Of a stretch of 42,298 nucleotides of DNA, positions 7,145-20,630 are shown piece after piece. The stretch's first letter is position 1. Each line of letters begins with the position of its first letter. Under the pieces are notes generated by a model. It worked only from the letters and a program-made list of their open reading frames with translations. It had not been told where the DNA came from and did not search any database. The translations under genes and the position numbers were made by a program. The DNA comes from Prevotella sp. (GTDB lineage: Bacteria > Bacteroidota > Bacteroidia > Bacteroidales > Bacteroidaceae), in NCBI GenBank assembly GCA_017508965.1, contig JAFWQT010000071.1:1-42298 (forward strand), written 5' to 3'.

Positions 7145-7226
7145 GCGCCTGTGGCGGAATTGGTAGACGCGCTAGACTTAGGATCTAGTGTCTCCCGACG
7201 TGCAGGTTCGAGTCCTGTCAGGCGCA
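7145..7226 (+). tRNA. tRNA-Leu (anticodon UAG)
   Basis: 82-nt class II tRNA. The acceptor stem GCGCCTG (7145-7151) pairs with CAGGCGC (7219-7225) and the discriminator is A7226. The anticodon stem CTAGA/TCTAG encloses loop CTTAGGA with anticodon TAG (7179-7181), and the T arm holds GGTTCGAGTCC. The long variable arm fits tRNA-Leu. The CCA end is not encoded. Confidence 0.95.
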
Positions 7227-7273
7227 CTTGTTAGTTTATTATGGTTAAACCTCTAACGATTTGAACATATTAG

Positions 7274-7864
7274 ATGATTAAAATAGTTAGATGGCATATA
7301 TGTAGATTTTTTTTATTGACAGTGTTGCTAATGCTGTCGAGCAGTAGCATATATGCCCAAGAACGCGAAGAATCCGTCCTTTTGCGAGCAAACATTTTGC
7401 GATGGGCAACGCTGACTCCCGACATCGGTGTGGAGTGGCAGCTCAACAAGGAATGGAGTGTTTTGGCAAATGCCACCTATACCCGATGGAGCTGGAAAGA
7501 CAACAACCGGCGTTTTGCCCAGAAGGAATTCGCAGGCGAGATCAGGCACTACATGGGCTATATGTCAACACAGCTGCCCTGGTATGTCGGTCTGATGATT
7601 CACGGCGGACAGTACAACTTCGGATTTTCTGACACCGGCCGGCAGGGCGACTACATGGGTGGGGGAATCACCGCAGGCTACCGCTTGCGCCTGCACAACA
7701 AACGTTTCTTCATCGACTTCGGCGGAGCACTTGGTTTCACGCATGGCACCATTGAAAAGTACAAGACCATCGACGGAGTGCGCTACCTGACGGCTGAAGA
7801 GAATAAGAACTACATCGGCATTAACAAGCTCTCGGTGGCTATCGTGTGGAATTTCTTAAAATAG
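7274..7864 (+). CDS. DUF3575 domain protein, first gene of the fimbrial locus
   Basis: 196 aa with a signal peptide (hydrophobic 12-27, cleavage after SIYAQ). The mature part opens 'LLRANILRWATLTPDIGVEWQL', the hallmark start of DUF3575 proteins, and consists of amphipathic beta-strands ending 'LSVAIVWNF', consistent with a small outer-membrane or periplasmic barrel. In Bacteroidetes this family commonly begins fimbrillin operons, as here: the next gene starts 10 bp downstream and four fimbrillins follow. A role in assembly or anchoring of fimbriae is inference. No clear promoter of the usual pattern was found between the tRNA and this gene, so readthrough or a weak promoter is possible. Confidence 0.8.
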   Translation: MIKIVRWHICRFFLLTVLLMLSSSSIYAQEREESVLLRANILRWATLTPDIGVEWQLNKEWSVLANATYTRWSWKDNNRRFAQKEFAGEIRHYMGYMSTQLPWYVGLMIHGGQYNFGFSDTGRQGDYMGGGITAGYRLRLHNKRFFIDFGGALGFTHGTIEKYKTIDGVRYLTAEENKNYIGINKLSVAIVWNFLK

Positions 7865-7873
7865 GACAAGGCA

Positions 7874-8794
7874 ATGAAAAAGCATATCTTCTACATACTC
7901 ATAGGCATGGCCGCGATGTTCTCGCTGGCATCGTGCGTGAAGGATAAGCTCTATCTGCTGCCAGAAGACGATCCTGACTATTTCAATCCCGACGAGTGGA
8001 AACAGGGCACCATGGTGGTAAGAACCGACTGGAGCCGCACCGACCAGGGCATCATGCCCACAGACGAATACTATCTCAGGCTGAACGACGAAACCTATAT
8101 CGTCAGCGATGCCACCAACACCTTCCGCCACCTGCATCCCGAAGACTATAAGGTGATTGCCTACTACGACCCGACGGGCATCACGATTGCCGACAACATC
8201 GCAACCGTTGACAACGAAGCCGACGGAACCCTGCTGCGCATGCCGGGTATGCTGATGGTTTCCGACTATAAGGATGCCAAGGTGACGCGTGGAGATACCA
8301 CCTACGTCGACCTCACCATGCGCCAGCTGGTACACGAGGTGAACGTGATTATCTATATGCGGCCCGGCGACGAGAACCTCATCTCGAACATCACGGGGTC
8401 CATTGACGGTATTGCACAGGCCGTCGACATCACCAGCGGCACGGTGACCTCCAACTACAACAGTGTCATTACCCTGCCGCTTACCCTGAAATACGTCGAC
8501 TACAACGGAAAGGACGAGTCGCTGAAAGGTCAGCAGGTGCCTGCCTACGAATGCACCATCCGCATCATCGACATCATAGAAGCCTCGTCGCAGCCCATGG
8601 AACTGAACATCGTCTATAACGACGGCTCTGAGGAAAAGCGAACCGTTGAACTGGAGAACATCCTGAACAACATCAGCAAAAAGGACGATACCACCTACGT
8701 GGAACTCGACATCAGCGTCGACAACAATACAAACATCCGCACTTCCATTATCGACTGGCATGTGGTGGACGAGGGACATCACGTCGCTCATTAA
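7874..8794 (+). CDS. Fimbrial locus lipoprotein, DUF5119/Mfa2-like
   Basis: 306 aa with lipobox 'SLASC' (Cys21). The mature protein has segments typical of the fimbrial anchor superfamily: 'EDYKVIAYY' (about residues 95-103, a strand seen in FimB/Mfa2 and DUF5119 proteins), 'MRQLVHEVNVIIYM' (about 152-165) and a C-terminal 'RTSIIDWHV' strand similar to the fimbrillin 'I.DW' ending. It sits between a DUF3575 gene (10 bp) and the first fimbrillin (about 50 bp), the usual place of the DUF5119 lipoprotein. It could be the base or anchor subunit or a regulator of fimbrial length; assignment between DUF5119 and Mfa2 families is uncertain without a profile search. Confidence 0.7.
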   Translation: MKKHIFYILIGMAAMFSLASCVKDKLYLLPEDDPDYFNPDEWKQGTMVVRTDWSRTDQGIMPTDEYYLRLNDETYIVSDATNTFRHLHPEDYKVIAYYDPTGITIADNIATVDNEADGTLLRMPGMLMVSDYKDAKVTRGDTTYVDLTMRQLVHEVNVIIYMRPGDENLISNITGSIDGIAQAVDITSGTVTSNYNSVITLPLTLKYVDYNGKDESLKGQQVPAYECTIRIIDIIEASSQPMELNIVYNDGSEEKRTVELENILNNISKKDDTTYVELDISVDNNTNIRTSIIDWHVVDEGHHVAH

Positions 8795-8843
8795 CCCCGC
8801 GACTGATTCAAAGCAGAAGACATAAACATATAATAACAACTAC

Positions 8844-9767
8844 ATGAAAATGGAAAAAATCCTTTTTAACCGTATATCAATGGCTTTGATATTCTTTGCC
8901 TTGATAACCACCCAGCTGTTTACTTCATGTAGCAGCAATGATGAAGAACAGGCCTCGGGCAATCAGCAGCCCGTAAAGCTGATCATCACGGCAGACATCT
9001 CCACGCGTGCAGCCAATGCAGCATGGGCAGCAGGAGATAAGATAGGCGTGTTCTCTATGGACGGAGCAACGGCCTCATACAGCAACATGTCGTACACCAC
9101 TGAGAGCGGCAACGGTAATTTCACACCGAGCAGCGAAGACCAGACCATCATGCTGCCCTACGACAACAGCAGCCGTACCATAGCAGCCTACTACCCCTTC
9201 ACTGCCGCCGCAGCAACGGGCACTTATTCCATCGACGTAAGTAATCAGGCAAATCAGGAAGCCATCGACCTGCTCGTGGCTAACCCTGTGAGCAACATCA
9301 CCAAACTGAGTCCGGTTGCCGCCCTCGAGTTCCACCACAAACTGGTGAAGATTGCGCTGACGATGAGTCCCGGCGAAGGCGTCACAGCCGAACAGCTGGC
9401 CAACATGACCGTCACCATCAGCAATCAGCAGACCACCGGTACTTGCGACGTTATCAACAATGGCAACGTCAGCGTGACACCTGCCGCAGCCTCTACCATC
9501 ACGCTGCTTACGACCAACAACGGAACCTCAAGCGAGGCCATCCTGTTGCCTGCCACCACTACAGCAGGCATGACGCTGACCTTCAACATCCCCGGTGCCG
9601 GTGTCTATACCTGGACAGTGAACAGCGCTGCGAAGTCGCAGTCGTTCGATGCCGGAAACAAATACAAATACGATATCTCCATCAACAAGACGTCTATCAT
9701 CGTGAACTCCACCATCGAGGACTGGACGCAGGGTAACGGAGAAGGAGAGAATGGTAATGCACTTTAA
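8844..9767 (+). CDS. Fimbrillin family lipoprotein 1
   Basis: 307 aa (or 305 from the internal ATG at 8850, 'MEKIL'). The lipobox is 'LFTSC' (Cys29). After the lipobox comes 'ISTRAANAAWAAGDKIGVF', in which 'TRA' followed by 'W..GD.IGVF' is the typical fimbrillin (Mfa-like) opening. 'LEFHHKLVKIALTM' in the middle and 'STIEDWTQG' at the end complete the pattern. In the family the N-terminal region is removed after the Arg by a protease outside the cell and the subunits polymerise by strand exchange; whether that happens here is inference. The protein is rich in Thr/Ala/Ser/Asn, as expected for a surface pilin. Confidence 0.8.
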   Translation: MKMEKILFNRISMALIFFALITTQLFTSCSSNDEEQASGNQQPVKLIITADISTRAANAAWAAGDKIGVFSMDGATASYSNMSYTTESGNGNFTPSSEDQTIMLPYDNSSRTIAAYYPFTAAAATGTYSIDVSNQANQEAIDLLVANPVSNITKLSPVAALEFHHKLVKIALTMSPGEGVTAEQLANMTVTISNQQTTGTCDVINNGNVSVTPAAASTITLLTTNNGTSSEAILLPATTTAGMTLTFNIPGAGVYTWTVNSAAKSQSFDAGNKYKYDISINKTSIIVNSTIEDWTQGNGEGENGNAL

Positions 9768-9796
9768 TCACAGATAAACAAGAAAAAACAACAGAT

Positions 9797-10750
9797 ATGA
9801 AGAAGTATATTATTCTTGCAACAGCCGCCTTAGCATTGGCAGCATGCAGCAGCGACGAAGTGAAGGAGCAGGAATGGAACGGAGAAATCCGCCTCAGCTC
9901 TGTAAGTGTTGTCCAGGCCACTCGTGCCTCAGGTAATATCCAGTCAACTGTTTTCGACAGCGGAGAGAATGTGGATATTTTCATCAATGAGAATACCACT
10001 GGAACAGCCTCGACGACCTACACCCAGCCACTGGTTTATACCACAGGCACAGGCGGTTCGCTGACGGCCCCCTCCCCACAGTTCTATCCGTCGAGCGGCA
10101 ACGGCGTCAACATCTTTGCCGTATACCCTTCAGGAGCAGCAACCAGCGTGAATGGCACGGCTGTGGCTTTCTCCGTGAAAACCGATCAGAACTCTGATGC
10201 CAATTATAAGGCAAGCGACCTGATGACCGGTGCCCCTTCCAGCAATCCTGTTGGCCGTACGGCAACCACGGTTCCTTTGGTGTTTAAACATTGTCTGACC
10301 AAAATCAACCTGAACATTTATGCCGGCGAAGGTATCTCTATGGATGAACTCGCCGCTGCGAAGGTTTCCATTCTCAACGCCACTCCTAATGCCACTTTCA
10401 ACGTTAAGACGGGAGCCGTCACCGCAGTTTCTTCTGTAGGTACTACAGCTCCGGTCATCGATTTGGGATCTGTGGTCCCAGGACAAGATGGAACCATCAC
10501 TGCCAGTGCCATCATTGTTCCTCAGACAATTGCTGCCAGCACCAGATTCATCAGGATTTCCATCGGTACGAACCCGTCGACCGACCTCGTATACGCGCTG
10601 CCGGAAGCTGCTGCAACCACCTTTGAAGCCTCAAAAGTTTATACGTTTAATATCACTGCCAGAATGTCGGGCCTGAATATCACCGGTTCTACTATTACCG
10701 ACTGGACCGACGGTGGCACGTTCACTGGCGACGCCATACCAGGCAACTAA
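9797..10750 (+). CDS. Fimbrillin family lipoprotein 2
   Basis: 317 aa with a short signal and lipobox 'ALAAC' (Cys17). It shares the layout of its neighbours: 'QATRASG' near residue 50, 'FYPSSGNGVNIFAVYP' in the first domain, 'ASDLMTG' (also in the fourth fimbrillin), 'LVFKHCLTKINLNIY' in the second domain, and C-terminal 'STITDWTDGGTF'. It starts about 30 bp after fimbrillin 1. It is probably a structural or tip subunit of the same fimbria; which subunit cannot be told. Confidence 0.8.
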   Translation: MKKYIILATAALALAACSSDEVKEQEWNGEIRLSSVSVVQATRASGNIQSTVFDSGENVDIFINENTTGTASTTYTQPLVYTTGTGGSLTAPSPQFYPSSGNGVNIFAVYPSGAATSVNGTAVAFSVKTDQNSDANYKASDLMTGAPSSNPVGRTATTVPLVFKHCLTKINLNIYAGEGISMDELAAAKVSILNATPNATFNVKTGAVTAVSSVGTTAPVIDLGSVVPGQDGTITASAIIVPQTIAASTRFIRISIGTNPSTDLVYALPEAAATTFEASKVYTFNITARMSGLNITGSTITDWTDGGTFTGDAIPGN

Positions 10751-10765
10751 TATATAATAAGGTAT

Positions 10766-11692
10766 ATGAAAACAAGCAAGCTTCTCATCATAGCCATAGC
10801 AGCAACAGTCTCCCTCTTCACCGCTTGTACAGCTGAAGAGGAAGACTACCCTGCAAACCGGGAACTGGTGTTCCAGGTTGGCTTGAAAGGAACGCGTGCC
10901 ACCCCTGACAACTCTTGGGCGGTAGGTGACTTTATAGCTGTAAAGGTGGGAGGGGTTGTAAAAAAGTATGTCATCACCGACCTCTCGGGAAAGGCTGTAG
11001 GTGCCGATGCGGATAATACTTTTTATTGGGATGAACTGGGAGCATCTTCCGTAAAAGTTTCTGCCTGGAGTTTTGGAGGCAAGTACGTCAGTTCCCTTGA
11101 AGACAGTATCACAACTGTAATAGATCAGAGAACTTACGACAACTACAAAGTCAACGATTTCGTATATGCGAAAGAGACCGCCATCAAGCAGGGACAAACG
11201 GGAACCTTGACCTTCTATCACCAGATGGCACGCCTTAATTTCAATATTAAAGTAGACGACCCCAATGAAACTGTTAGTGATATGGTTATCGGAGATGAGG
11301 ACGAATACTCACGACCTTTATTGAAAGCAAGATTCTTTTATACCGACACGCTTTCTAATTATGGCTGGTTCGAGTTCACTGATGAAAACATGGTGACAAC
11401 CAAAGTAATCCCATACAAGGAGGAGACTGCGGCCACAGGTTTTGATGTATCATATTCTGCCATAGTGATTCCCATTACCATCGAAGGGGCGTTTTTCGAA
11501 ATAAAAACCACAGATGGGAAAGTGGAGACAAGTTACCCGATAGACAGTTGGGAGTTATCAGCGAATAATCCTGATATTGAACTATACTATGAACCCGGAT
11601 GTGAGTATACTATTAATATCACCATCAAAAACAAGCAACTCATTATCGGAAACGGGAAAACTGCGGTTACTGTAAATGATTGGATAGAATAA
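10766..11692 (+). CDS. Fimbrillin family lipoprotein 3
   Basis: 308 aa with lipobox 'LFTAC' (Cys21) followed by an acidic stretch. 'GTRATPDNSWAVGDFIAV' is the fimbrillin signature with the TRA site. Mid-protein 'TLTFYHQMARLNFNI' corresponds to the H-K/M-x-x-x-I strand of the others, and it ends 'AVTVNDWIE'. Compared with fimbrillins 1 and 2 it is visibly richer in A/T, suggesting a different history or relaxed codon selection. It starts 15 bp after fimbrillin 2, and its TAA stop overlaps an ATG (TAATG) in the frame of the next gene. Confidence 0.75.
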   Translation: MKTSKLLIIAIAATVSLFTACTAEEEDYPANRELVFQVGLKGTRATPDNSWAVGDFIAVKVGGVVKKYVITDLSGKAVGADADNTFYWDELGASSVKVSAWSFGGKYVSSLEDSITTVIDQRTYDNYKVNDFVYAKETAIKQGQTGTLTFYHQMARLNFNIKVDDPNETVSDMVIGDEDEYSRPLLKARFFYTDTLSNYGWFEFTDENMVTTKVIPYKEETAATGFDVSYSAIVIPITIEGAFFEIKTTDGKVETSYPIDSWELSANNPDIELYYEPGCEYTINITIKNKQLIIGNGKTAVTVNDWIE

Positions 11693-11706
11693 TGACAAGA
11701 CGTGAT

Positions 11707-12522
11707 ATGAAAAAACAAAGCATTGCACAATATCTTTGCATAGGCATGGTTGCCTTCTTGTTCATGGCTTGTTCCCAGGAGGAAGAGGCCGAGAAGGTGA
11801 ATGTCTCTGTCCCGCTCAGAGTGATGATCAACAATGGTCAGTCATCACTAACGCGTGCCACTCTTAGCGGATTGTCCACAGAATTTGAAGCTGATGACAC
11901 TATTGGTATTTACATAGCAAACGAAGATCGTACCCAGTATGATAATGTCCCCTATGTATTCGACGGTACTGACTGGTATCTCGCCTCAGGAGAATATGTT
12001 CCCAAAAGAGTTTCATTTCTTGCAGGCTACGAATATTATGCCTATTACCCATACAAAGAATCACCTGGCGGCTGGCCATACTATTATGACAGGGATGATG
12101 ACGGGGATTGTACTGCCGACGAATTCTTTTACAGCATCATCAACTATTGGAATCCATTAGAAGACCAGAGCACTAAAGCCAAATTTAATGCCAGCGACCT
12201 GATGGCCGGAAAAGGAACCATCGTAGATGCACAAAACGGCATTGTTTCTTTCAATCTTGACCACAAGATGGGATTGATAAAGATAGAACTCCTAAATGGA
12301 AATGGTGGACATATTACAAACATTTCCGCTAGCAGTGCTGAAATATTCTCGGCAGATTCACATATTCCATATAAGATTGGTGACGAGTTCTACCAAATTG
12401 CCAAACCCAACCAATTATTTTCCTTATATTTCAAACCACCTGTTGATTATATAGATGCGAAAATAGACACTGTCACACCAAGACCAGGGCGTTTATCACG
12501 CTTGGAATTTGTGCTCTATTAA
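11707..12522 (+). CDS. Fimbrillin family lipoprotein 4, possibly C-terminally short
   Basis: About 271 aa from the ATG at 11707 (MKKQSIAQYL), chosen because it gives a normal signal peptide and lipobox 'LFMAC'; in-frame ATGs at 11680 and 11692 would add a charged tail before it. It carries 'SLTRATLSG', 'DTIGIYIANE', 'ASDLMAGKG' and 'VSFNLDHKMGLIKIELL', all aligned with the other fimbrillins. Unlike them it ends 'LSRLEFVLY' with no final 'I.DW' strand. It is A/T-rich like fimbrillin 3. It could be a capping subunit or a truncated gene. A 25-bp inverted repeat follows 19 bp after the stop. Confidence 0.7.
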   Translation: MKKQSIAQYLCIGMVAFLFMACSQEEEAEKVNVSVPLRVMINNGQSSLTRATLSGLSTEFEADDTIGIYIANEDRTQYDNVPYVFDGTDWYLASGEYVPKRVSFLAGYEYYAYYPYKESPGGWPYYYDRDDDGDCTADEFFYSIINYWNPLEDQSTKAKFNASDLMAGKGTIVDAQNGIVSFNLDHKMGLIKIELLNGNGGHITNISASSAEIFSADSHIPYKIGDEFYQIAKPNQLFSLYFKPPVDYIDAKIDTVTPRPGRLSRLEFVLY

Positions 12523-12609: not shown

Positions 12610-13989
12610 CTAGAAGGCGAATCCGATACCGATGCTGAAGTTATGCTGACCGAGGAAATCCTTCAGCGCACTGTCGAGAGCGAAACGGTAACTGTAACCT
12701 ACACGGGCTGCGAAATAGCTGTACTTCACGCAGAAACCGATTTCAGGATTAATCGAGACACCGGCATTAAACTTCTGCCCTTCTTCCTTATCAATATCTT
12801 CCACGATAGCCTCCTTAGTGGGATAGCCATGCTCGTCGGGATGAGAGTTCTTGTCAATGGTATCATACCTTCCATAGAAGCCCTTCATCGTCACACCAGG
12901 ACCGAAAGTCACCCATACGGGAACCTTCTCAGACTTGACGATATGCTTTGTCCAGCCCACGCCGAAATTCACTTCGGGATGGTCGGGAATGGCATTGCCT
13001 GAATTGCTCTGCAAGGCACTAAAGGCCTTGGAGTTCACATTCAGATGCAGATAGATACCGCCTTTGGTCTGGTTATAGCGACCGTAATGAATACCAATGG
13101 GAGCGCCATCCATCCATTCGTAGGTAACCACGCTGGCATGCTCTTCCTTTGCAGTCAGATAGTTGCCGATGCTGTTCAGGCGCTCGGTAGAAGTTTTGGC
13201 CTCAGGACAGCCGTTTTCCACGACGCGCTGATAGAGCGTACGTGCCTTCTCATACAGGCGATTGTCGAAATAAGCCTCAGCCTGCTTGAAAGTGACGGCA
13301 CATTCAGAAGAATACTTCTCGTTACACTCCTTGAATTTCTGAACGGCGTAGGCATCATACGAGTTAATCTGCACGATGGTATTGTAAATCTCGGCAGCCG
13401 CACTATAGTCGAGCATGCGATAAAGAATGTCGGCATCGCTACGAAGCTTAATCAGCGAATCCACCTTGGCGATATTGGCGTTGTTCTCTGCATTATCGCA
13501 GTCGGAGCACTGCATGGCCACGCGGAACTGGTTGAGTGCCTCCTCGTAGTTGGCATTCTGAATCTCGTGAACACCCCTGTTACGGTGACCGCGATAACAG
13601 CCTGCATCAACCATCGAGTTCGGGTCGTAGATTCTGAACGTGCGCAACTGTTTCGGCTCCAAGTCTACGGGAATGTCGAGCGGACTGTATCCAGGAGCAA
13701 TAACCGTAATCACACGGCCACGATACCTCGAGCCTGCCGGAAGCTCAATGAAATACACTGAGTCAGTTCCCTGAATCTCGGTACTGAAAAGGTCGACCGA
13801 CTTGTCCATCGTAGACGTGAACTTCAAGGGAATGTCATGGTTACATCTGATTTCGACAGCTGCCTTCTCACCTTCGCTGGAATAGACTGCGTTAGCCTGC
13901 GAGAGGTCGTCAACTTCAAGCACTCCCTGTGCACCGACAAGCGCCGACGTCATGCAAGCCAGGAGTAATAGTAAGCTTTTCTTTAACAT
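12610..13989 (-). CDS. Exported protein with PEGA-like, TPR and barrel-like parts
   Basis: 459 aa with a signal peptide (MLKKSLLLLLACMTSALVGA-Q). Residues about 90-125 ('LPAGSRYRGRVITVIAPGY') look like a PEGA-type beta domain. Residues about 140-280 form helical repeats of the TPR kind ('ANYEEALNQFRVAMQ', 'LYEKARTLYQRVVENG'). The last ~180 residues alternate polar and hydrophobic and end 'HNFSIGIGFAF', consistent with an outer-membrane beta-barrel with a terminal Phe. It is the last gene of the seven-gene operon, 23 bp after the NTF2-like gene. A scaffold linking periplasmic partners to the outer membrane is a reasonable inference, but the function is unknown. Confidence 0.7.
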   Translation of the reverse strand: MLKKSLLLLLACMTSALVGAQGVLEVDDLSQANAVYSSEGEKAAVEIRCNHDIPLKFTSTMDKSVDLFSTEIQGTDSVYFIELPAGSRYRGRVITVIAPGYSPLDIPVDLEPKQLRTFRIYDPNSMVDAGCYRGHRNRGVHEIQNANYEEALNQFRVAMQCSDCDNAENNANIAKVDSLIKLRSDADILYRMLDYSAAAEIYNTIVQINSYDAYAVQKFKECNEKYSSECAVTFKQAEAYFDNRLYEKARTLYQRVVENGCPEAKTSTERLNSIGNYLTAKEEHASVVTYEWMDGAPIGIHYGRYNQTKGGIYLHLNVNSKAFSALQSNSGNAIPDHPEVNFGVGWTKHIVKSEKVPVWVTFGPGVTMKGFYGRYDTIDKNSHPDEHGYPTKEAIVEDIDKEEGQKFNAGVSINPEIGFCVKYSYFAARVGYSYRFALDSALKDFLGQHNFSIGIGFAF

Positions 13990-14012
13990 AGCTATTTTGT
14001 TGTTTATGATTA

Positions 14013-15008
14013 TTATCTAACAATTCGGAAGGAACCCAGGTGGAACACGTCCTCACGCTTGGTGACAACCTGTCCCTCAGCATTCTTGTACGGCTGCCAG
14101 GTACGCACCTGAATGAGCGGATTGTCGGCATCGCGGAAGTCAATCATCAGGAACAGATAGCCCTCGTCGCTATAGCCAGAGGTATGCCAGTATTGTTTCA
14201 GGGTAACGCCATACACATCGTCATACTTCGGATGCTGCACCACCTCTATCTCGTCGAACTTCACGTTAATATACTTCGTGTTCTTGAAGACGCGCGTCAG
14301 ATTGGTGATATACTGCTGCTTCGACTGCTTGATGTAAACCACCTTATTATTATTAAGAGTCATGCGGGTGAGGTCGCTGTTGGGTTTCTCCTTGACCACC
14401 TTACCCGTAATGATGAGCGCCTTGTCGGAAAACACGCTATTCAGCAGGTCGATGTCCTTGCGGTTGTAGGCCGTGCGGAAGTTCTCCACGAAATCCACGA
14501 TAATCTGGCGGCGGGCATAGTCGAGGTCGCTCTCCTTCTGTCCCATGATTTCCTCATAGCGCTGAAGGTCGATAGAGATGCTCACACCGGAGATGCGCCC
14601 GTCGGTGGTGAAATCGACCGTCAGTTCCTGGCGCGACTCCGCCTGGTCGGCCTCAACCATGTCAATGGGAATGCCGCGCACCTGATAGCCACTGGAGGTT
14701 TTCAGGCAACGGCTCATGATATTCACGGGAGGACAGCTCATGGCGCTGGCCTTCCACATCTGCTCTATATCCTTGATGGCTTCGGGCGTGAAGTTTTCCT
14801 TTGGCAGTTTTATCTTCTTCTCCTGCTCGTCGGCAGCCGTTTTGAAAACAGTCATCATCTGCGTGACATTCTTCTCCATCTTTGCCTTCGTAGCAGCATC
14901 GACAACCCCCTCGTTGATCTTGAAGGTTGCCCCGTCTGCCATTGCGACGGTGGTCATCATGAACAGCAGAACCGTCACGAACGGTCTTATTATCACATTC
15001 TTAGTCAT
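14013..15008 (-). CDS. Exported protein with NTF2-like C-terminal domain
   Basis: 331 aa with a signal peptide (hydrophobic 8-24, cleavage after VAMA). The C-terminal half, from about residue 180, has the pattern of an NTF2/SnoaL-like cone: 'VENFRTAYNRKDIDLLNSVFSDKALIITG', then strands around 'YWHTSGYSDEGYLFLMIDF' and a final 'TWQP' strand. The N-terminal half is helical and then beta, unrecognised. Fold assignment is by eye. It is the sixth gene of the caspase operon, with 21 bp to the preceding gene and 23 bp to the next. No enzyme motif is evident; a ligand-binding or protein-interaction role in the periplasm is possible. Confidence 0.65.
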   Translation of the reverse strand: MTKNVIIRPFVTVLLFMMTTVAMADGATFKINEGVVDAATKAKMEKNVTQMMTVFKTAADEQEKKIKLPKENFTPEAIKDIEQMWKASAMSCPPVNIMSRCLKTSSGYQVRGIPIDMVEADQAESRQELTVDFTTDGRISGVSISIDLQRYEEIMGQKESDLDYARRQIIVDFVENFRTAYNRKDIDLLNSVFSDKALIITGKVVKEKPNSDLTRMTLNNNKVVYIKQSKQQYITNLTRVFKNTKYINVKFDEIEVVQHPKYDDVYGVTLKQYWHTSGYSDEGYLFLMIDFRDADNPLIQVRTWQPYKNAEGQVVTKREDVFHLGSFRIVR

Positions 15009-15029
15009 TTCTATATTGATAACGATTTT

Positions 15030-15695
15030 TTATTCTTTATATTTTCCAAATAGCGTGCGAATATTGTGCTGCGGAATATTTCCATAAAGCGTCGCCGTAA
15101 CCAAGCCGCCGTCTTCGAACAATTCCTCTGTAGGCACGGAAACCACAAACAGATGGATGAAGTTCAGCTTGCGGTGGTGAAACACCAGCGTGGCATCAAT
15201 CTTGTCCTTATTGATAGAGGTAACGCTACAATAGATGTCCATATTGCGGGCCAGCAGGTCGTAGATGTTCTGCATGTTCTGCACGGGCACCTTCTTCGAG
15301 CTGCCATACATGCTTTGGGTGATGGCAATGCGCAGCTTGTTCTGCTTCACGCGGTTGAGCAGGATATTGGTGAACGACTCCATCGGATAGCGCTTGTCGA
15401 ATATCGGCTCATAGCTGCCGCGCTTTTCGCGGACATAGAAGCTGGATGTCATCGACTTCACCTGGAACGACTTGCCTTTCACGATATAGATGCCACGCTC
15501 GGCCGTCGACTCCAGGTCGCGCTTACTGACTGTAAGGGGTGCATGATAGTTTTCGGCGACATGGGAAGCACAGAGCTGTTCGTAGAGCAGCGTGTCGGCA
15601 CTTACCTTGTCACGATCCTGGGCCACTGCCATGCCGGCCACCAACAAGACCGACAGGAAGAGCCATTGACGCGGATAACTGATGATGAAACGCAT
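15030..15695 (-). CDS. Unknown exported protein of the caspase operon
   Basis: 221 aa with a signal peptide (MRFIISYPRQWLFLSVLLVAGMAVA-Q). I do not recognise a family. The mature protein contains 'GIYIVKGKSFQVKSMTSSFYV', 'MESFTNILLNRVKQNKLRIAITQSMYG' (an amphipathic helix) and 'IDATLVFHHRKLNFIHLFVVSVP', an alternation of alpha and beta elements in a compact globular size. Two Cys may be present in the mature part, but no catalytic signature is visible. It lies 12 bp downstream of the DUF4384-like gene and 21 bp upstream of the NTF2-like gene, so it is expected to work with them in the periplasm. Confidence 0.65.
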   Translation of the reverse strand: MRFIISYPRQWLFLSVLLVAGMAVAQDRDKVSADTLLYEQLCASHVAENYHAPLTVSKRDLESTAERGIYIVKGKSFQVKSMTSSFYVREKRGSYEPIFDKRYPMESFTNILLNRVKQNKLRIAITQSMYGSSKKVPVQNMQNIYDLLARNMDIYCSVTSINKDKIDATLVFHHRKLNFIHLFVVSVPTEELFEDGGLVTATLYGNIPQHNIRTLFGKYKE

Positions 15696-15707
15696 AGCTT
15701 GCCGTTT

Positions 15708-16640
15708 TTATTTCGTCTTATATGCTGCACGATAGATTCCCGACTTCATCTGCTCGCCGCCGTTGCCGCGGATGGGATTCATCAGGATACTGAAGTCGAC
15801 AGGTTCCTCTGTTGCAACGAGCAGGAAGGTCTCACGGGAATTTGCCTCAGAGAATTCAAAGGGTTCCGACTTGAATGCCACCGTGCTGCGGGCCGGCACC
15901 AGCAGATGGGCGCAGATGGCAGCCTCATCAACCGGGAGCACCAGGTATTTGTTGCCGCGCTCGTCGATGTCAAGCACATTCACAAAGAGCGGTTCTTCCG
16001 TACCGTTGGTGACGCGCACATAGCAATTAGTGTTTACATCAACCTCGGGATTTACGGGCAGTCCCGTCTCGCATGAAACAAGGTCGAAACGCACGTCCAT
16101 ATCCGTTGAAAGGAGATTCTTGGGCTGTATCAGACTGCTCTCCACGGCAACTGCCTGGTCTGACATGCTGGCAAGACGGTTCAGCAGGAACGAGTCGCGA
16201 GCCGTGGCACGATACGAAGTGGCCGTAGCCTGCATGTAGGCGCTGGGATGGGTGAGGTTCTTGCTCTCTTTCGAGAACAACTGCTTCACCATATAGCTGA
16301 GATACTGCTTAGAAAGGTTCTTGGGAGCCTTGGCGGCTTTCAGCAAAGCGCCCACGGTATTGGTTCCCTCGGTGGTAAACGAATACATCTTGCTATTTAC
16401 CTCGTCGAGTACCGTCACCGCACTCTCCTTGCCAATCACCAGCCGACTGGAAGCCTTGAGCGTTTTGCGCGCACTCAGGGCAACGGGTTTCGAGCCCTCG
16501 TAAACCTTGGCCGTTCCCACAACGGAATAAACCAGATAGTCTGCTGCGCTGGCCACCGAAGAGGTCAGCAGCGCAAACACCAGAGCGAAAAGGTGCAGCG
16601 CACCGTATGTTTTCAAATTCATAGTCATGTTCTTTTTCAT
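15708..16640 (-). CDS. Exported FecR/DUF4384-like protein
   Basis: About 310 aa from the ATG at 16640 (MKKNMTMNLKTYG); the frame is open to 16706 but that start would overlap the caspase gene. The signal peptide ends at VASA-A. The first mature domain, 'VVGTAKVYEGSKPVALSARKTL', 'SRLVIGKESAVTVLD', resembles a FecR-type beta domain. The C-terminal part, 'NCYVRVTNGTEEPLFVNVLDI', 'KYLVLPVDEA', 'ARSTVAF' and 'ETFLLVATEEPVDF', matches the DUF4384 layout, a domain often fused to or encoded beside caspase-like proteases in bacteria. Here it is a separate protein 25 bp downstream of the caspase gene, which supports a joint role. Domain calls are by eye. Confidence 0.7.
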   Translation of the reverse strand: MKKNMTMNLKTYGALHLFALVFALLTSSVASAADYLVYSVVGTAKVYEGSKPVALSARKTLKASSRLVIGKESAVTVLDEVNSKMYSFTTEGTNTVGALLKAAKAPKNLSKQYLSYMVKQLFSKESKNLTHPSAYMQATATSYRATARDSFLLNRLASMSDQAVAVESSLIQPKNLLSTDMDVRFDLVSCETGLPVNPEVDVNTNCYVRVTNGTEEPLFVNVLDIDERGNKYLVLPVDEAAICAHLLVPARSTVAFKSEPFEFSEANSRETFLLVATEEPVDFSILMNPIRGNGGEQMKSGIYRAAYKTK

Positions 16641-16665
16641 TCTCATTTTGTCAAATCTAATAGTT

Positions 16666-18384
16666 TTATTTCTCGTAGGTAAAAAGTTCAAAGGGTTCCA
16701 TTCCATTCGGATTCATGAAGATGGGCGTCTGCTTGAAGTCGGTCATCTGGCGCACGGCCTTGTATAGATACTGGTCGAGCTGCTGGGTTGACAGGCCAAT
16801 CTCGCCCTCGCCACGGGCAGCGCCGTTGAAGGCATCCACCAGGGCTTTGGTGAAGGCGCCGTTCTTCCAGTCTTCGTTCTCCTTCGACTTGGTGTCGCTG
16901 GCGCTTGAGGCATACATCACCATGCCGTTCTTGGTCCGGCGCAGCTGCTCCACGAAATGATTGCTGGCAGCCGAGCGGTTGCCGCCCATCAAGGCACCCG
17001 AGTAGCAGGCATCAACGAAGACGATGAGCTTGCCGTTGATATCCTCCACAGCCTGACGGAAATCGTTGCTCGAGAAGCAGTTATACAGCTTCGATGTGCT
17101 GCTTCCGTAGTTCATGAAGTAGAAGCGGTCTTTCTCGTCGCGATAGCCATGACCGGCATAGAAGAAGATGCAGACATCCGTCGGTGAAGACTCCTGCTTC
17201 AGCCATTCCATGGCCTCGTAAAAGTCCTCGCGCGTGGCCTCTTCGTCGGTAATGGTCTTCACCTGCACGTCCTGATAAGGGTATCCTTTCTTGGTGCTGA
17301 GCACATGGGCGAAATCGCGCGCGTCCTTGGTGGTGAACTTCAGTTTCGGCAGTTCGGGATCGTTATAGTCGCCCACGCCGATGGCTACGGCAAAGAGCCG
17401 CGGCAGTTCGGCCACCTGCTTCTCGCGGACAAGACGGATGCTTGCCGGTTCGCTGTTTCCATTTTCGTTCTGCGCATAGATGGTCACCGTGCAGTCGCGA
17501 TTGGGAAGGTCAACCTCCACCGTATTGGCAGCACGCACGGCACGGTCGGCCGGCTGTTTCTGGCCGTCAACCATAACGGTAACCCGCGTGCTGGCCTCCA
17601 GTCCCTGTGCCAGCAGCTGGTAGCGCAGCTTGATGACATCGGTATGGAACGGACTCTGGTCTTCGGGGAACAGTATTCTCACCTCGGGGGGAACGGGGCG
17701 GCTGCTTGCCGCAGGCTTCGGAGCCGTCGTAGACTCGCTTTCTCCGCCCATGTTCAGCGTAATTTCTCCCTTCGGGTCAATCTCCACTTCGGTGCCCTGG
17801 TTATCCTGTTTCGGATCCGGCTGCTGAGCAGTTGAAGGCTTCGGAGCCGTTGCCGGCTGCTTCACCTCGGCCACATCCTGCATAGGGATGGCAGCCGAAT
17901 GCTTGCCGGCAGCCTTGTCTTTCCAGAGCTGGCTCATTTTCTTGTCCTGCATCACAAGCACACCTTTCTCATAGCATTCGGCCAGGGTGAGCTGTGCGTT
18001 CTGGTTTCCGTTGTTGGCTGCGTCGGTAAGGTTACGCAACGCCTTGTCGTAGTCGATGGGCACGCCGCGCCCGTACATATAGCAATAGGCCAGATTATAC
18101 TGGGCCTTGGCAAATCCCTTGCGGGCCGCACGCTTGAACCACATGGCTGCCGTGGCGTAGTCCTTGTCGATACCTTCTCCGTTATAAAGGGCATAGCCCA
18201 GGTTGAACTGGCCTTCCTGACTGCCGGCCTCGGCTGCCTTCTGGTAGCATTCCACGGCTTTGCTGAACTGTTGCTTGTCATAGAAGTCGTTGCCCTGCTT
18301 CAGCCATTGGTCGGCCGACTGGGCTCCGACGCCTGACACCCAACACCAAACTACTATTAACAGATATAATCTATTTCTCTTCAT
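16666..18384 (-). CDS. Periplasmic Sel1-repeat/caspase-family (C14) protease
   Basis: 572 aa with a signal peptide (cleavage about VGA-Q at 21-22). Residues ~24-160 are Sel1/TPR repeats ('GQFNLGYALYNGEGIDKDY', 'AQYNLAYCYMYGRGVPIDY'). A Pro/Ala/Gln-rich linker (about 170-230) precedes an Ig-like domain (about 232-318: 'PEVRILFPED', 'VMVDGQ'). The caspase fold follows (about 328-555): His412 in 'FFYAGHG' and Cys460 in 'VDACYSGALMGG' form the catalytic dyad, and 'GMVMYASSASDTKSKE' and 'GAFTKAL' are also typical. All key residues are present, so it should be active. The ATG overlaps the stop of the CHASE2 gene (TAATG), giving translational coupling. Export of a caspase next to a membrane sensor suggests controlled proteolysis in the envelope; targets are unknown. 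Confidence 0.88.
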   Translation of the reverse strand: MKRNRLYLLIVVWCWVSGVGAQSADQWLKQGNDFYDKQQFSKAVECYQKAAEAGSQEGQFNLGYALYNGEGIDKDYATAAMWFKRAARKGFAKAQYNLAYCYMYGRGVPIDYDKALRNLTDAANNGNQNAQLTLAECYEKGVLVMQDKKMSQLWKDKAAGKHSAAIPMQDVAEVKQPATAPKPSTAQQPDPKQDNQGTEVEIDPKGEITLNMGGESESTTAPKPAASSRPVPPEVRILFPEDQSPFHTDVIKLRYQLLAQGLEASTRVTVMVDGQKQPADRAVRAANTVEVDLPNRDCTVTIYAQNENGNSEPASIRLVREKQVAELPRLFAVAIGVGDYNDPELPKLKFTTKDARDFAHVLSTKKGYPYQDVQVKTITDEEATREDFYEAMEWLKQESSPTDVCIFFYAGHGYRDEKDRFYFMNYGSSTSKLYNCFSSNDFRQAVEDINGKLIVFVDACYSGALMGGNRSAASNHFVEQLRRTKNGMVMYASSASDTKSKENEDWKNGAFTKALVDAFNGAARGEGEIGLSTQQLDQYLYKAVRQMTDFKQTPIFMNPNGMEPFELFTYEK

Positions 18385-19607
18385 TATTTCTTCGGCGGTT
18401 TAAAATAAAGTGATTTTTGAGCAAAAGCGTACAGCCGTTTCCATTGTGGATGGATGGTGCAGTAGTCGATGAACCACATGTAGTGGATGCGGGCTCGCTC
18501 GATAAAGGCAACACCCAGCAACGGCAATAGCAGCGAGATGTCGTAGTCGTATTTCACGAAACAGAGGAATCCTATCCATGCAAACACGACGCTGATAACC
18601 AAATATACCAATTTATTCCAATAGATGAAGAATCGGGGGGATTTCTTTCGGGTCAGATAGCCGGCATAGCCTGCAATGAGACATACGATGAGCGTCAGCA
18701 GACCGGAAACGATGTTCGACATCGACGATATCTCATGATGCCCGATGTAGGTCTCGGCAGCGTAGGCCACGGTCTTCAGTCCCGGCATCTTGCCAATGGG
18801 CGTGAAGTGCATGTCGGCCTCTTCGGTAATCGTACCCACCATGGCCAGCTTACCCTTGATGAGCGGCTTGTTCAGCAACACGGAATCGTATCTCACGATG
18901 GGGAACTCCACGTTCGAGTAGAGTATCGTGCGCTTGTTGTTGGGCTCCACCGACGGCTTTTTGCCCATGTACTGGCAGGCAGCCAGATAGGGCAGCGAAT
19001 AATAGGTGGCGGTGTCCAGCTTCTGGCTGATGGTATAGTCGCGAAGGGTTCCGTTGGGGCCGTTGCTCTTCAGCACATTGCTGTAGGCCCACGTGTAGGT
19101 GCCGAAGGGTTCGAAGAACGACTTCAGCACGTCGACGAACTTGCCCTGCTCGGTCGACGAGGCAATCAGCTTGCACGACAGCACGGGCTGCGGCAGCTGG
19201 TCGATGGCCGAAATCAGCTCGCCGTTGGCAATCATGTCCTCGCCCTCTTTCTCGAAGATGACGTCCATCATCACCGTCTTGGGCTGGCAGGCCGCCAGGT
19301 CGCGGAGCGTCTGGGCTATCTCGCCGCGGTCGGTCTGCTCAGTGATGTCTATCAGCACGATGTCGTCGCTCCACTTCACCGAGTGTCCCATCCGCTCGAT
19401 GGAGAAATAGATGTCGGTCATCTTGAACTCGCTCAGCGCACGGCTGACGGGGTCGAAGAGTGAGAAATTGATGAACAGCGTGGCCCAGAAAGCGGTGATA
19501 ATCCATGCCAGCACAACCACGATGAGATGGTCGTGATGGAATATCTCGTGGATATTCTCCTTTATCTTCCGCTTTATGTAACTAAACAGTTTCATCTTTT
19601 TTCTCAA
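18384..19607 (-). CDS. CHASE2-domain membrane sensor without output domain
   Basis: 407 aa; an alternative start at 19595 (MKLFSYIK) would shorten it by 4 residues. One N-terminal membrane helix (about 28-48) is followed by a large extracytoplasmic CHASE2 domain: 'DPVSRALSEFKMTDIYFS', 'DDIVLIDITEQTDRGEIAQTLRDLAACQPKTVMMDVIFE' region and 'KGKLAMVGTITEEADMHFTPIG'. Three helices follow (about 295-315, 328-350, 352-368). CHASE2 proteins normally end in a cyclase, kinase or phosphatase; here the cytoplasmic tail is only ~40 basic residues. The sensed signal must therefore be passed through partners, the neighbouring K+ channel and caspase being obvious candidates (inference). Its start overlaps the channel gene by 26 bp and its stop overlaps the caspase start by 1 bp. 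Confidence 0.85.
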   Translation of the reverse strand: MRKKMKLFSYIKRKIKENIHEIFHHDHLIVVVLAWIITAFWATLFINFSLFDPVSRALSEFKMTDIYFSIERMGHSVKWSDDIVLIDITEQTDRGEIAQTLRDLAACQPKTVMMDVIFEKEGEDMIANGELISAIDQLPQPVLSCKLIASSTEQGKFVDVLKSFFEPFGTYTWAYSNVLKSNGPNGTLRDYTISQKLDTATYYSLPYLAACQYMGKKPSVEPNNKRTILYSNVEFPIVRYDSVLLNKPLIKGKLAMVGTITEEADMHFTPIGKMPGLKTVAYAAETYIGHHEISSMSNIVSGLLTLIVCLIAGYAGYLTRKKSPRFFIYWNKLVYLVISVVFAWIGFLCFVKYDYDISLLLPLLGVAFIERARIHYMWFIDYCTIHPQWKRLYAFAQKSLYFKPPKK

Positions 19608-20385
19608 TCTGTTTCTGGTCTTTTAACAGTTTTCGGGCCATCTTCTGCTCGCGCTTTGCCCTGAGCTCGTCCATATAGCCTGCCGTAATGATGCCCGACG
19701 GCAACGCAACAATGGCCACGCCTACAAAGGCGGAAATCATGCTGATGAACCTTCCTATCTGCGAAACGGGGTAGATGTCGCCATATCCGACGGTGGTCAG
19801 CGTGCAGGCTGCCCAGTAGACAGCGTCGAAGAACGTGTGGAACAGATAGTCGCCCGTGCTGGGGTTGATGTCTTCTTCGGCATTGAACATGATCAGGGCC
19901 GTGATGAAGATATAGAAGGCGGCCAGCGAGAACACCGTCCAGAGGATGCGCCCCTGGCGGCGGATGACGGCCATGATGATTTCCAACGGCTCATAGTAGC
20001 GGATGAACTTCACCACACGCAGGATTCTCAGCAGGCGCGTGATACGGGCTGTCTTGAACGTCGGACTAAGCAGGTGGATGGTAGGGAGGATACTCAGCAG
20101 GTCGATGATGGCCATGATGGTGAACGGGTAGATGATAAACGACACCCATCCCTTCTTCAGCTCGTAGTCGGCCGTTATCCACCGCAAGATGTAATCAGCC
20201 ACGAAAATGATGGCCGGAATAATGTCACAATACCAGAAGATGGGATAATGCTCGCGGAACATCAAAGGAAGTATGCTCACACCTATAACCACGGACATAC
20301 TGGCGTGATACAGCTGCGACCAGCCACCATCATCGTTGAGATATCCGGGGCCGATAATCTCGTATATCTTTTTCCTGACGTTCAT
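19582..20385 (-). CDS. Voltage-gated potassium channel (Kv type)
   Basis: 267 aa, six membrane segments. The S4 voltage-sensor helix carries Arg at 114, 117, 120 and 123 plus Lys126 ('RITRLLRILRVVKF'), one positive charge every third residue as in true voltage sensors. The pore has the K+ selectivity filter 'TTVGYGD' (197-203) preceded by a pore helix 'FFDAVYWAACTL', then S6 with 'ALPSGIITAGY'. A basic/acidic coiled-coil-like tail (about 238-267) may mediate assembly or partner contacts. It should form a tetramer in the inner membrane. It is the first gene of the CHASE2-caspase operon and overlaps the CHASE2 start. The promoter is at 20425-20454. Confidence 0.9.
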   Translation of the reverse strand: MNVRKKIYEIIGPGYLNDDGGWSQLYHASMSVVIGVSILPLMFREHYPIFWYCDIIPAIIFVADYILRWITADYELKKGWVSFIIYPFTIMAIIDLLSILPTIHLLSPTFKTARITRLLRILRVVKFIRYYEPLEIIMAVIRRQGRILWTVFSLAAFYIFITALIMFNAEEDINPSTGDYLFHTFFDAVYWAACTLTTVGYGDIYPVSQIGRFISMISAFVGVAIVALPSGIITAGYMDELRAKREQKMARKLLKDQKQIEKKDETV

Positions 20386-20424
20386 TCTCCGTTTCTACTT
20401 ATGTATAGCAGAGTTTTCCGAGTG

Positions 20425-20454
20425 CAAATATAACAATAATTCTGCGAAATACAA
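20425..20454 (-). promoter_or_regulatory. Promoter of the K+ channel-CHASE2-caspase operon
   Basis: On the minus strand TATATTTG (complement of 20425-20432) is preceded after 19 bp by TTG (complement of 20452-20454). This matches TTTG/TAnnTTTG with a weaker -33. It lies 40 bp upstream of the channel ATG. Confidence 0.6.
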
Positions 20455-20557
20455 TATGAAAAGCGTTTTTTTGTGCGTTTGGACCCAAAAACGCATTCAC
20501 GAGTTTGATAAAAATCTGAAAAGTAAAGCCGCAAATGATTATAAACAATTATTGCAT

Positions 20558-20630
20558 GCAAAGTAATTTAGTCTAAATTGCAAAGTAATTTAGTCTAATT
20601 TACCGAGCAATTTAGACTAAATTACTTTTG
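20558..20630. repeat. Three copies of a near-palindromic AATTTAGWCTAAATT element
   Basis: A 22-bp unit beginning GCAAAGTAATTTAGTC occurs at 20558-20579 and, one mismatch apart, immediately after at 20580-20601. A 20-bp inverted copy follows at 20609-20628. The core of each is a palindrome around one central base. Copies 2 and 3 can form a 17-bp stem. They lie about 105-175 bp upstream of the channel operon promoter and just beyond the asd terminator, so they could be operators for the operon. Confidence 0.6.

What the first reader, a model, noticed from the sequence alone, without database searches (positions are those of the whole stretch)
12610..20454. Seven-gene operon joining a voltage-gated K+ channel, an output-less CHASE2 sensor and a periplasmic caspase
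Seen: one minus-strand promoter, then overlapping or closely spaced genes for a Kv channel (S4 arginines, TTVGYGD filter), a CHASE2 protein, a Sel1-caspase with intact His412/Cys460, a FecR/DUF4384-like protein and three further exported proteins. The channel overlaps CHASE2 by 26 bp, and CHASE2 overlaps the caspase in a TAATG. Known: CHASE2 is an extracytoplasmic sensor domain; DUF4384 and caspase domains often occur together. Inferred: a signalling unit in which an envelope signal or a change of membrane potential controls proteolysis outside the cytoplasm, perhaps stress response, cell death or defence. I know of no named system of this makeup.
Basis: partly seen in the sequence, partly recalled or inferred. 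Interest (0 to 1): 0.78.

Follow-up and report, generated by a model that had tools for sequence, protein, structure and literature searches.

The report
Sensor–channel operon for an exported caspase
Rumen Prevotella carry a gene cluster that joins an ion channel and a membrane sensor without any inner output to a caspase-type protease outside the cytoplasm, and comparison with other genomes suggests that the sensor–protease part is a modular system while the channel is a repeated add-on.

Summary
CHASE2–caspase–'FecR-like'–g5–g6–g7 is a conserved cassette, usually without the channel. In the genus draw (398 genomes, 80 CHASE2 loci) the CHASE2 proteins end after short tails (79 visible, one cut), and 73 of 80 lie in a co-directional chain with a cysteine-protease-fold gene: C14 caspase, CHAT, or a transglutaminase-like family. 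Fusions support one complex: 'FecR-like'+caspase+outer-membrane barrel in one protein next to CHASE2 (L205), and caspase+g6 in two loci. At 14 g7 places outside CHASE2 cassettes, 13 keep g5 and g6, 11 have a caspase, and 9 a PP2C phosphatase, mostly with kinase and FHA genes. So inputs look exchangeable. The channel leads the operon in 10 of 10 window-clade loci and lies in CHASE2 modules in two other lineages of the channel tree; 45 of 46 other channels examined had none of these genes in their chain. The FecR label failed its tests. Best reading: an envelope signal, tuned here by membrane potential, gates an outer-membrane-anchored caspase complex.

The parts
20425..20454 (-). Promoter-like site: TTG, 19 nt, TATATTTG upstream of the Kv gene
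   Evidence: TATATTTG in 6 of 9 clade stretches, TAACTTTG in 2, neither in L015; promoter form recalled, no transcript mapped
19582..20385 (-). Kv: voltage-gated K+ channel, 267 aa; lineage-specific first gene
   Evidence: PF00520 E 2.6e-27, PF07885 E 2.3e-13; motifs; best PDB sequence matches are KCNQ-type channels
18384..19595 (-). CHASE2 sensor without output domain (ATG start 19595; a TTG at 19607 is possible)
   Evidence: PF05226 E 5.5e-17; alignment; tails; junction
16666..18384 (-). Sel1 plus C14 caspase with signal-peptide-like start, His412/Cys460
   Evidence: dyad in 9 of 9 clade orthologues and in 43 of 48 caspases of the CHASE2 loci
15708..16706 (-). g4: 'FecR-like' protein with signal-peptide-like start (label not confirmed; weak DUF4384)
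   Evidence: family member in 68 of 80 CHASE2 chains
15030..15695 (-). g5: protein of unknown fold with signal-peptide-like start, 221 aa
   Evidence: g5-g6-g7 travel together also without CHASE2
14013..15008 (-). g6: protein with signal-peptide-like start, 331 aa; highest mean column identity (75%) of the g5, g6 and g7 alignments; weak NTF2-like match below cut-off
   Evidence: fused to a caspase in L225 and L226
12610..13989 (-). g7: TPR protein with signal-peptide-like start and a C-terminal region that looks like an outer-membrane barrel ending in Phe (barrel inferred by eye only)
   Evidence: no barrel family matched; barrel analogy from the L205 fusion with PF13568
12539..12605 (.). Terminator-like hairpin between g7 and the convergent fimbrillin gene
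   Evidence: 28-nt arms, 96% complementary

Best explanation
A signal-gated protease system of the cell envelope. SHOWN by sequence: an inner-membrane CHASE2 sensor with no cytoplasmic output domain is encoded with a dyad-intact caspase that has a signal-peptide-like start, a partner (g4), and g5-g6-g7; in this clade a voltage-gated K+ channel is the first gene of the same tight gene run. INFERRED: CHASE2 reads an envelope signal and passes it on within the periplasm, through g4, to a caspase complex held at the outer membrane by g7; the released activity cleaves envelope proteins. INFERRED, weaker: the Kv channel couples opening of the gate to membrane potential or K+ (or resets potential during the response).
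For: In the genus draw 79 of 80 CHASE2 proteins are seen to end after a short tail (one is cut by its contig; judged by length and tail). 73 of 80 chains hold a cysteine-protease-fold gene and 68 of 80 a g4-family gene; in 72 of 80 a protease gene lies within two genes of CHASE2, and 71 of the 73 longest protease genes have a hydrophobic start. The same chain rule around 46 other Kv genes gave 1 positive, itself a CHASE2 case, though those chains are shorter (mean 2.6 genes against 4.6). CHASE2 groups keep their protease type: in the 28-row group that holds the window, 26 show C14, one (L012) is cut off before the caspase and one long-branch row (L161) has none; an 11-row clade has CHAT throughout. 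One protein, L205, carries a g4-type domain, a C14 domain with dyad and a PF13568 outer-membrane barrel, 62 bp after an output-less CHASE2. Caspase and g6 are fused in L225 and L226. CHASE2 next to FecR-domain genes with other outputs is published (PMC5192318 and PMC9239204, passages read). Kv: upstream of CHASE2 in 10 of 10 clade loci with largely different upstream flanks, and in transglutaminase-type CHASE2 modules in L114, L129 and L176; rough chance expectation 0.03 adjacent cases. Kv and CHASE2 co-occur in 24 genomes where 59 of 398 have Kv and 74 have CHASE2 (odds ratio 4.0, P 1.4e-5, not corrected for kinship).
Against: No function was measured. Direction of signal flow and any contact CHASE2-g4-caspase are inferred. 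The channel is absent from most cassettes, so it is not needed for the core. In L176 the CHASE2 is divergent (no Pfam match; own profile E 9.4e-7). 7 of 80 CHASE2 loci have no protease in the chain: L135 and L096 run into contig ends, the other five are unexplained. Of the 73, four rest on protease genes that are cut or short (L088, L108, L143, L147). In the wider phylum a caspase was found at only 6 of 20 stretches around mostly output-less CHASE2, so the protease link is strongest in the window's genus. The transglutaminase-like reading rests on weak matches, and its profile matched nothing relevant in the PDB.
Confidence: 0.55

Rival explanations
1. The Kv channel is a passenger: a self-contained channel gene that landed upstream and shares the promoter, with no role in caspase control.
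For: 45 of 46 other Kv genes examined have none of these genes in their chain; the core cassette lacks it in sister loci such as L107 and L113.
Against: Kv is the fixed left edge in 10 of 10 loci over roughly 68-93% Kv identity while the flanks beyond it mostly differ; two further lineages join CHASE2 modules.
Confidence: 0.3
2. The caspase is the maturation protease of the neighbouring type V (Mfa-like) fimbrillins, as gingipains are in Porphyromonas gingivalis.
For: Fimbrillin-like genes lie beside g7 in 8 of the 9 clade loci that reach that far; gingipain processing of FimA/Mfa1 is described in PMC8313007 (passages). That gingipains share the caspase fold is recalled.
Against: Apart from the window clade, none of the 96 CHASE2 and Kv loci searched matched the window fimbrillins, the 11 channel-less g5-g6-g7 cassettes included; L008 lacks them.
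Confidence: 0.12
3. An anti-phage or programmed-death system that kills the cell by envelope proteolysis.
For: Caspase and CHAT proteases serve in such systems (recalled); CHASE2 occurs at the C-terminus of EACC2 caspases (PMC8195603, passages).
Against: Only a generic PADLOC caspase match and one chance-level hit; the NCBIfam EACC1-type caspase model scores 103.8 against a cut-off of 140; the caspase has a signal-peptide-like start; g6 matched no plasmid record and CHASE2 no phage record.
Confidence: 0.08

Closest known systems
CHASE2-caspase fusion of Trichodesmium erythraeum (PMC3501461, PMC2853523; passages)
   Same: CHASE2 sensor paired with a C14 caspase
   Different: One polypeptide there; a review's scheme puts the caspase domains of such membrane-bound proteins in the cytosol (PMC7475262, passages). 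Here separate genes, and the caspase has a signal-peptide-like start
Burkholderia BiofilmReg operon (PMC5192318, passages)
   Same: CHASE2 sensor beside an exported FecR-labelled protein
   Different: Output there is a histidine kinase and response regulator inside the cell; here the CHASE2 has no output domain and the partner is a protease; our g4 did not match FecR
Campylobacterota CHASE2-adenylate cyclase cluster (PMC9239204, passages)
   Same: CHASE2 with FecR-labelled outer-membrane protein and TPR protein
   Different: Adenylate cyclase as output of the CHASE2 protein; no caspase and no Kv mentioned in the passages
EACC2 caspase systems (PMC8195603, passages)
   Same: Caspase with CHASE2 among variable receptor domains
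   Different: Receptor domain fused to the EACC2-caspase protein; no g5-g6-g7 set mentioned in the passages

Membership tests
Voltage-gated K+ channel (Kv) | Ion_trans fold, S4 basic repeat, TVGYGD filter | tested here: met
   TTVGYGD in 57 of 58 and the S4 pattern in 55 of 58 channels
Voltage-gated K+ channel (Kv) | Voltage-dependent K+ current | not testable with these tools
   Needs electrophysiology
CHASE2 receptor | PF05226 domain between membrane helices | tested here: met
   E 5.5e-17, 62.6 against 26.3 bits; hydrophobic segments on both sides
CHASE2 receptor with output | C-terminal cytoplasmic output domain | tested here: not met
   Window. Genus: short tails in 79 of 80, one cut (length and tail only, no Pfam scan of each; two longer ORFs, L091 and L113, are read as start-calling).
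Peptidase family C14 | Profile match and His/Cys dyad | tested here: met
Peptidase family C14 | Proteolytic activity | not testable with these tools
   No assay
FecR (PF04773) | Match to the FecR domain profile | tested here: not met
   no match of the window protein; not among the 25 of 57 families listed for 51 members; hhalign probability 1.7% against four true FecR domains
DUF4384 (PF14326) | Match over the curated cut-off | tested here: inconclusive
   Window protein 13.9 of 27 bits; 10 of 51 family members match at E up to 1, best 2.1e-5
EACC1-type caspase | NCBIfam NF047832 over its cut-off | tested here: not met
   103.8 against 140 bits
Known anti-phage system | Complete set of PADLOC components | tested here: not met
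   seven proteins: only a generic caspase model (E 2.2e-10) and a weak PtuA match (E 0.002)

The most novel reading that the evidence does not exclude
Bacteroidota have a general kind of signalling in which the output is proteolysis outside the cytoplasm: output-less CHASE2 sensors act sideways in the periplasm on an outer-membrane-anchored cysteine protease (caspase, CHAT or transglutaminase-like). The same exported caspase/g5-g6-g7 effector can instead be wired to a cytoplasmic kinase-phosphatase-FHA circuit, and in three lineages the CHASE2 form has recruited a voltage-gated K+ channel, which would make extracytoplasmic proteolysis responsive to membrane potential.
Probability: 0.35. Interest if true: 0.88.

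Novelty: new variant of a known kind. Interest (0 to 1): 0.72.

Why it matters
The literature passages read here describe CHASE2 sensors that feed kinases or cyclases, or that are fused to caspase domains drawn in the cytosol. A family in which the sensor has no inner output and its partner is an exported protease would be a distinct route of envelope signalling. It gives caspase homologues of rumen bacteria a testable context, and it offers a direct test of whether a bacterial Kv channel, a class whose physiological role is largely open (recalled), serves in signalling. No paper holding both 'CHASE2' and 'potassium channel' was found in the library; the library covers open-licence papers only.

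Tried and rejected
Rejected: FecR membership of g4. Rejected for lack of support: site-specific inversion as the cause of g7's strand changes; no long inverted repeats flank g7 in the four loci checked. Not supported: tRNA-end duplication marking an island; the tRNA-Leu 3' end occurs once in the window. Weak and not used: the Phage_DNA_bind match of g5 and the Cds6_C/SnoaL matches of g6, all below cut-off. PDB profile searches of the transglutaminase-like family, g7, g4, g6 and CHASE2 gave nothing usable beyond TPR matches for g7; g5 was not searched there. One caspase label of my own profile was false (a Na/H exchanger in L088) and was dropped before the counts. My gene calls come from my own ORF script with overlap rules, not from a trained gene finder; some starts, for example in L091 and L113, are probably wrong. 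L124, L132, L144 and L135 repeat L009, L008, L011 and L012 (judged by equal contig length); the genus-draw counts use the former names, the clade, tree and dyad counts the latter, so each locus counts once in a count. L150, L152 and L153 are near-identical. In the Kv control the transglutaminase profile was not run on 6 of the 46; one search ran it there and found nothing.

Dead ends in papers: 'CHASE2' with 'CHAT domain', and 'TPR-CHAT' with 'caspase' and 'Bacteroidetes', each gave 0 papers; the search on Kv channels with Bacteroides and Prevotella listed nothing that looked relevant.
Full report
WHAT IS THERE. Pfam confirms the channel, the CHASE2 domain and the caspase. The caspase dyad His412/Cys460 is present. 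The TAATG overlap is real. The channel/CHASE2 overlap is 14 bp with the ATG start or 26 bp with a TTG start. A promoter-like TATATTTG lies before Kv in 6 of 9 clade stretches compared, with TAACTTTG in two and a tRNA instead in L015. A strong hairpin lies after g7.

THE WINDOW CLADE. Nine loci from named contigs, several of them from omasum samples by title, carry close relatives. Kv lies immediately upstream of CHASE2 in 10 of 10 loci, the window included. The six-gene order Kv to g6 is kept in 9 of 9 loci; the tenth, L012, ends at its contig edge. g7 is next door in all 8 relatives that reach it, but on the opposite strand in 7. Upstream flanks are visible in 9 of the 10 loci (not in L009) and are mostly unrelated: close matches (69% or more) occur only between window and L007, L013 and L014, and L008 and L012, the last pair at different distances. 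So Kv is the fixed left border of the unit. On the right, fimbrillin-like genes follow in 8 of 9 loci, L008 being the exception.

THE WIDER GENUS. PF05226 finds 80 CHASE2 places in 74 of 398 genomes. I fetched the surroundings of all of them (the window serves for its own) and called genes with my own script. Within a co-directional chain (gaps up to 250 bp, six genes down, four up), 68 of 80 have a g4-family gene and 73 of 80 a cysteine-protease-fold gene: a C14 caspase, a TPR-CHAT protein, or a family that I read as transglutaminase-like. In 72 of 80 the protease gene is within two genes of CHASE2; four of the 73 rest on genes that are cut or short. The transglutaminase-like family has an invariant Cys, His and Asp, and 12 of 34 members match Transglut_core weakly, best E 7.6e-4. 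Of the 7 chains without a protease, L135 and L096 run into contig ends. As a control, the same rule around 46 other Kv genes gave one positive, L176, itself a CHASE2 case; those chains are shorter (mean 2.6 against 4.6 genes), so the control is not fully matched. Eleven CHASE2 loci hold CHASE2-caspase-g4-g5-g6-g7 in order with no Kv in the stretch; in L152 and L153 the contig starts near CHASE2, but their genomes gave no Kv match. They include L107 and L113, the sister group of the window clade in the CHASE2 tree (96*). Thus the core unit is six genes and the channel is an addition.

FUSIONS. In the wider phylum, 111 of 296 genomes have CHASE2. Most places in the capped list are in long open frames; I examined 20 stretches out of the 30 places, chosen for short CHASE2 genes or for being in the same class. 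A caspase is in the neighbourhood in 6 of the 20. L205 is the most telling: 62 bp after CHASE2 lies one protein with a g4-type domain (own profile, E 2e-9), a C14 domain (E 2.8e-16) with the dyad, and an outer-membrane barrel domain (PF13568, E 2.4e-6). This mirrors g4, the caspase and the inferred barrel of g7.

A SECOND INPUT. g7 occurs in 30 of 398 genomes. Of its 32 rows, 15 belong to CHASE2 cassettes; one (G134) is on another contig of a clade genome; two are fragments, of which the one in G375 was not examined. I fetched the other 14. Thirteen of 14 carry g5 and g6 too; 11 of 14 have a caspase; in L225 and L226 the caspase and g6 are one protein; L222 keeps caspase-g4-g5-g6-g7 without CHASE2. 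Nine of 14 carry a PP2C phosphatase, 8 a Ser/Thr kinase, 8 an FHA protein and 7 a LytTR protein, by similarity to L227 (domains confirmed on L227). The same queries hit 0 or 1 of the 96 CHASE2/Kv loci each. So the same set appears with two different input modules.

THE CHANNEL. Kv at E up to 1e-30 is found at 61 places in 59 of 398 genomes. With the stretches fetched and the CHASE2 loci I saw the context of 52 of the 61; the other 9 lie in genomes without a PF05226 match. Linked cases are the window clade, L114 and L129 (Kv 5-6 bp after the transglutaminase-like gene) and L176 (transglutaminase-like gene, divergent CHASE2, a 207-aa protein with signal-peptide-like start, Kv). In the Kv tree these need three changes; starred branches alone force only one, so a single origin with losses is not strictly excluded. 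A rough chance model expects 0.03 adjacent cases; leaving out the window case, two or more has P about 4e-4. The model assumes 2500 genes and 25 genomes with both.

MECHANISM. The sensor domain, g4, the caspase and g5-g7 are placed on the outer side of the inner membrane: signal-peptide-like starts were read by eye in the window, and 71 of the 73 longest protease genes of the genus loci have a hydrophobic start by a crude rule. A stricter 19-residue hydropathy scan did not flag the window caspase and g5 starts; no signal-peptide program was at hand. I therefore infer lateral signalling in the periplasm onto a caspase complex anchored at the outer membrane. The channel would add sensitivity to potential or K+. 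None of these steps is shown by experiment.

RIVALS. Passenger channel, fimbrillin maturation and cell death/defence are weighed in their own sections. Fimbrillin processing deserves a test because gingipains do this job in Porphyromonas gingivalis (PMC8313007, passages) and fimbrillin genes sit next door, but the core cassette exists without them.

KNOWN OR NEW. CHASE2 with caspase in one protein (PMC3501461, PMC2853523, PMC8195603; passages) and CHASE2 beside FecR-labelled genes (PMC5192318, PMC9239204; passages) are in print. Of the 7 papers listed for CHASE2 plus caspase I read passages of four. I found no description of output-less CHASE2 with an exported caspase, nor of CHASE2 with a Kv channel, in those passages or in the listings. 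The library holds open-licence papers only. I file it as a new variant of a known kind.

Noticed in passing
window 7274-12522 (+): Fimbrial cluster beside g7: DUF3575, an Mfa2/DUF5119-like gene (both matches below cut-off) and four Mfa_like_1 fimbrillin genes. Fimbrillin-like genes flank the cassette in 8 of 9 clade loci.
   Followed up: partly
window 7145-7227 (+); L015:8118-8202; L012:7913-7988: tRNA genes lie near the unit or its fimbrial neighbour: tRNA-Leu(TAG) at the far end of the fimbrial cluster in the window and just before Kv in L015, tRNA-Pro shortly before Kv in L012. No duplicated tRNA end was found in the window.
   Followed up: partly
window 20557-20622: Three 22-nt repeats in tandem with a palindromic ATTTAGWCTAAAT core upstream of the Kv promoter-like site. 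Among the 221 loci held then, the core occurs in the copies of this place (L001, L051) and once in L010 about 2 kb from Kv. Possibly a regulator site.
   Followed up: partly
L018, L114, L129, L176 and others: Transglutaminase-like family (invariant Cys, His, Asp in 34 aligned) next to output-less CHASE2; 17 of 35 members not cut by stretch ends also match the g4-type profile.
   Followed up: partly
L224, L227, L228, L230-L235: Cassette of PP2C phosphatase, mostly with Ser/Thr kinase, FHA and LytTR genes, next to g5-g6-g7 and in 7 of these 9 a caspase.
   Followed up: partly
L099, L103, L118: Caspase-like proteins in which neither dyad motif was found (4 of 48), encoded beside dyad-intact ones: possible pseudo-caspase partners.
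   Followed up: no
L223 (second g7 of genome G356): A g7 gene with no g5, g6 or caspase recognised around it, in a genome that also has the full cassette.
   Followed up: no
window 30390-35225 (-): 1611-aa ORF with collagen-like repeats.
   Followed up: no
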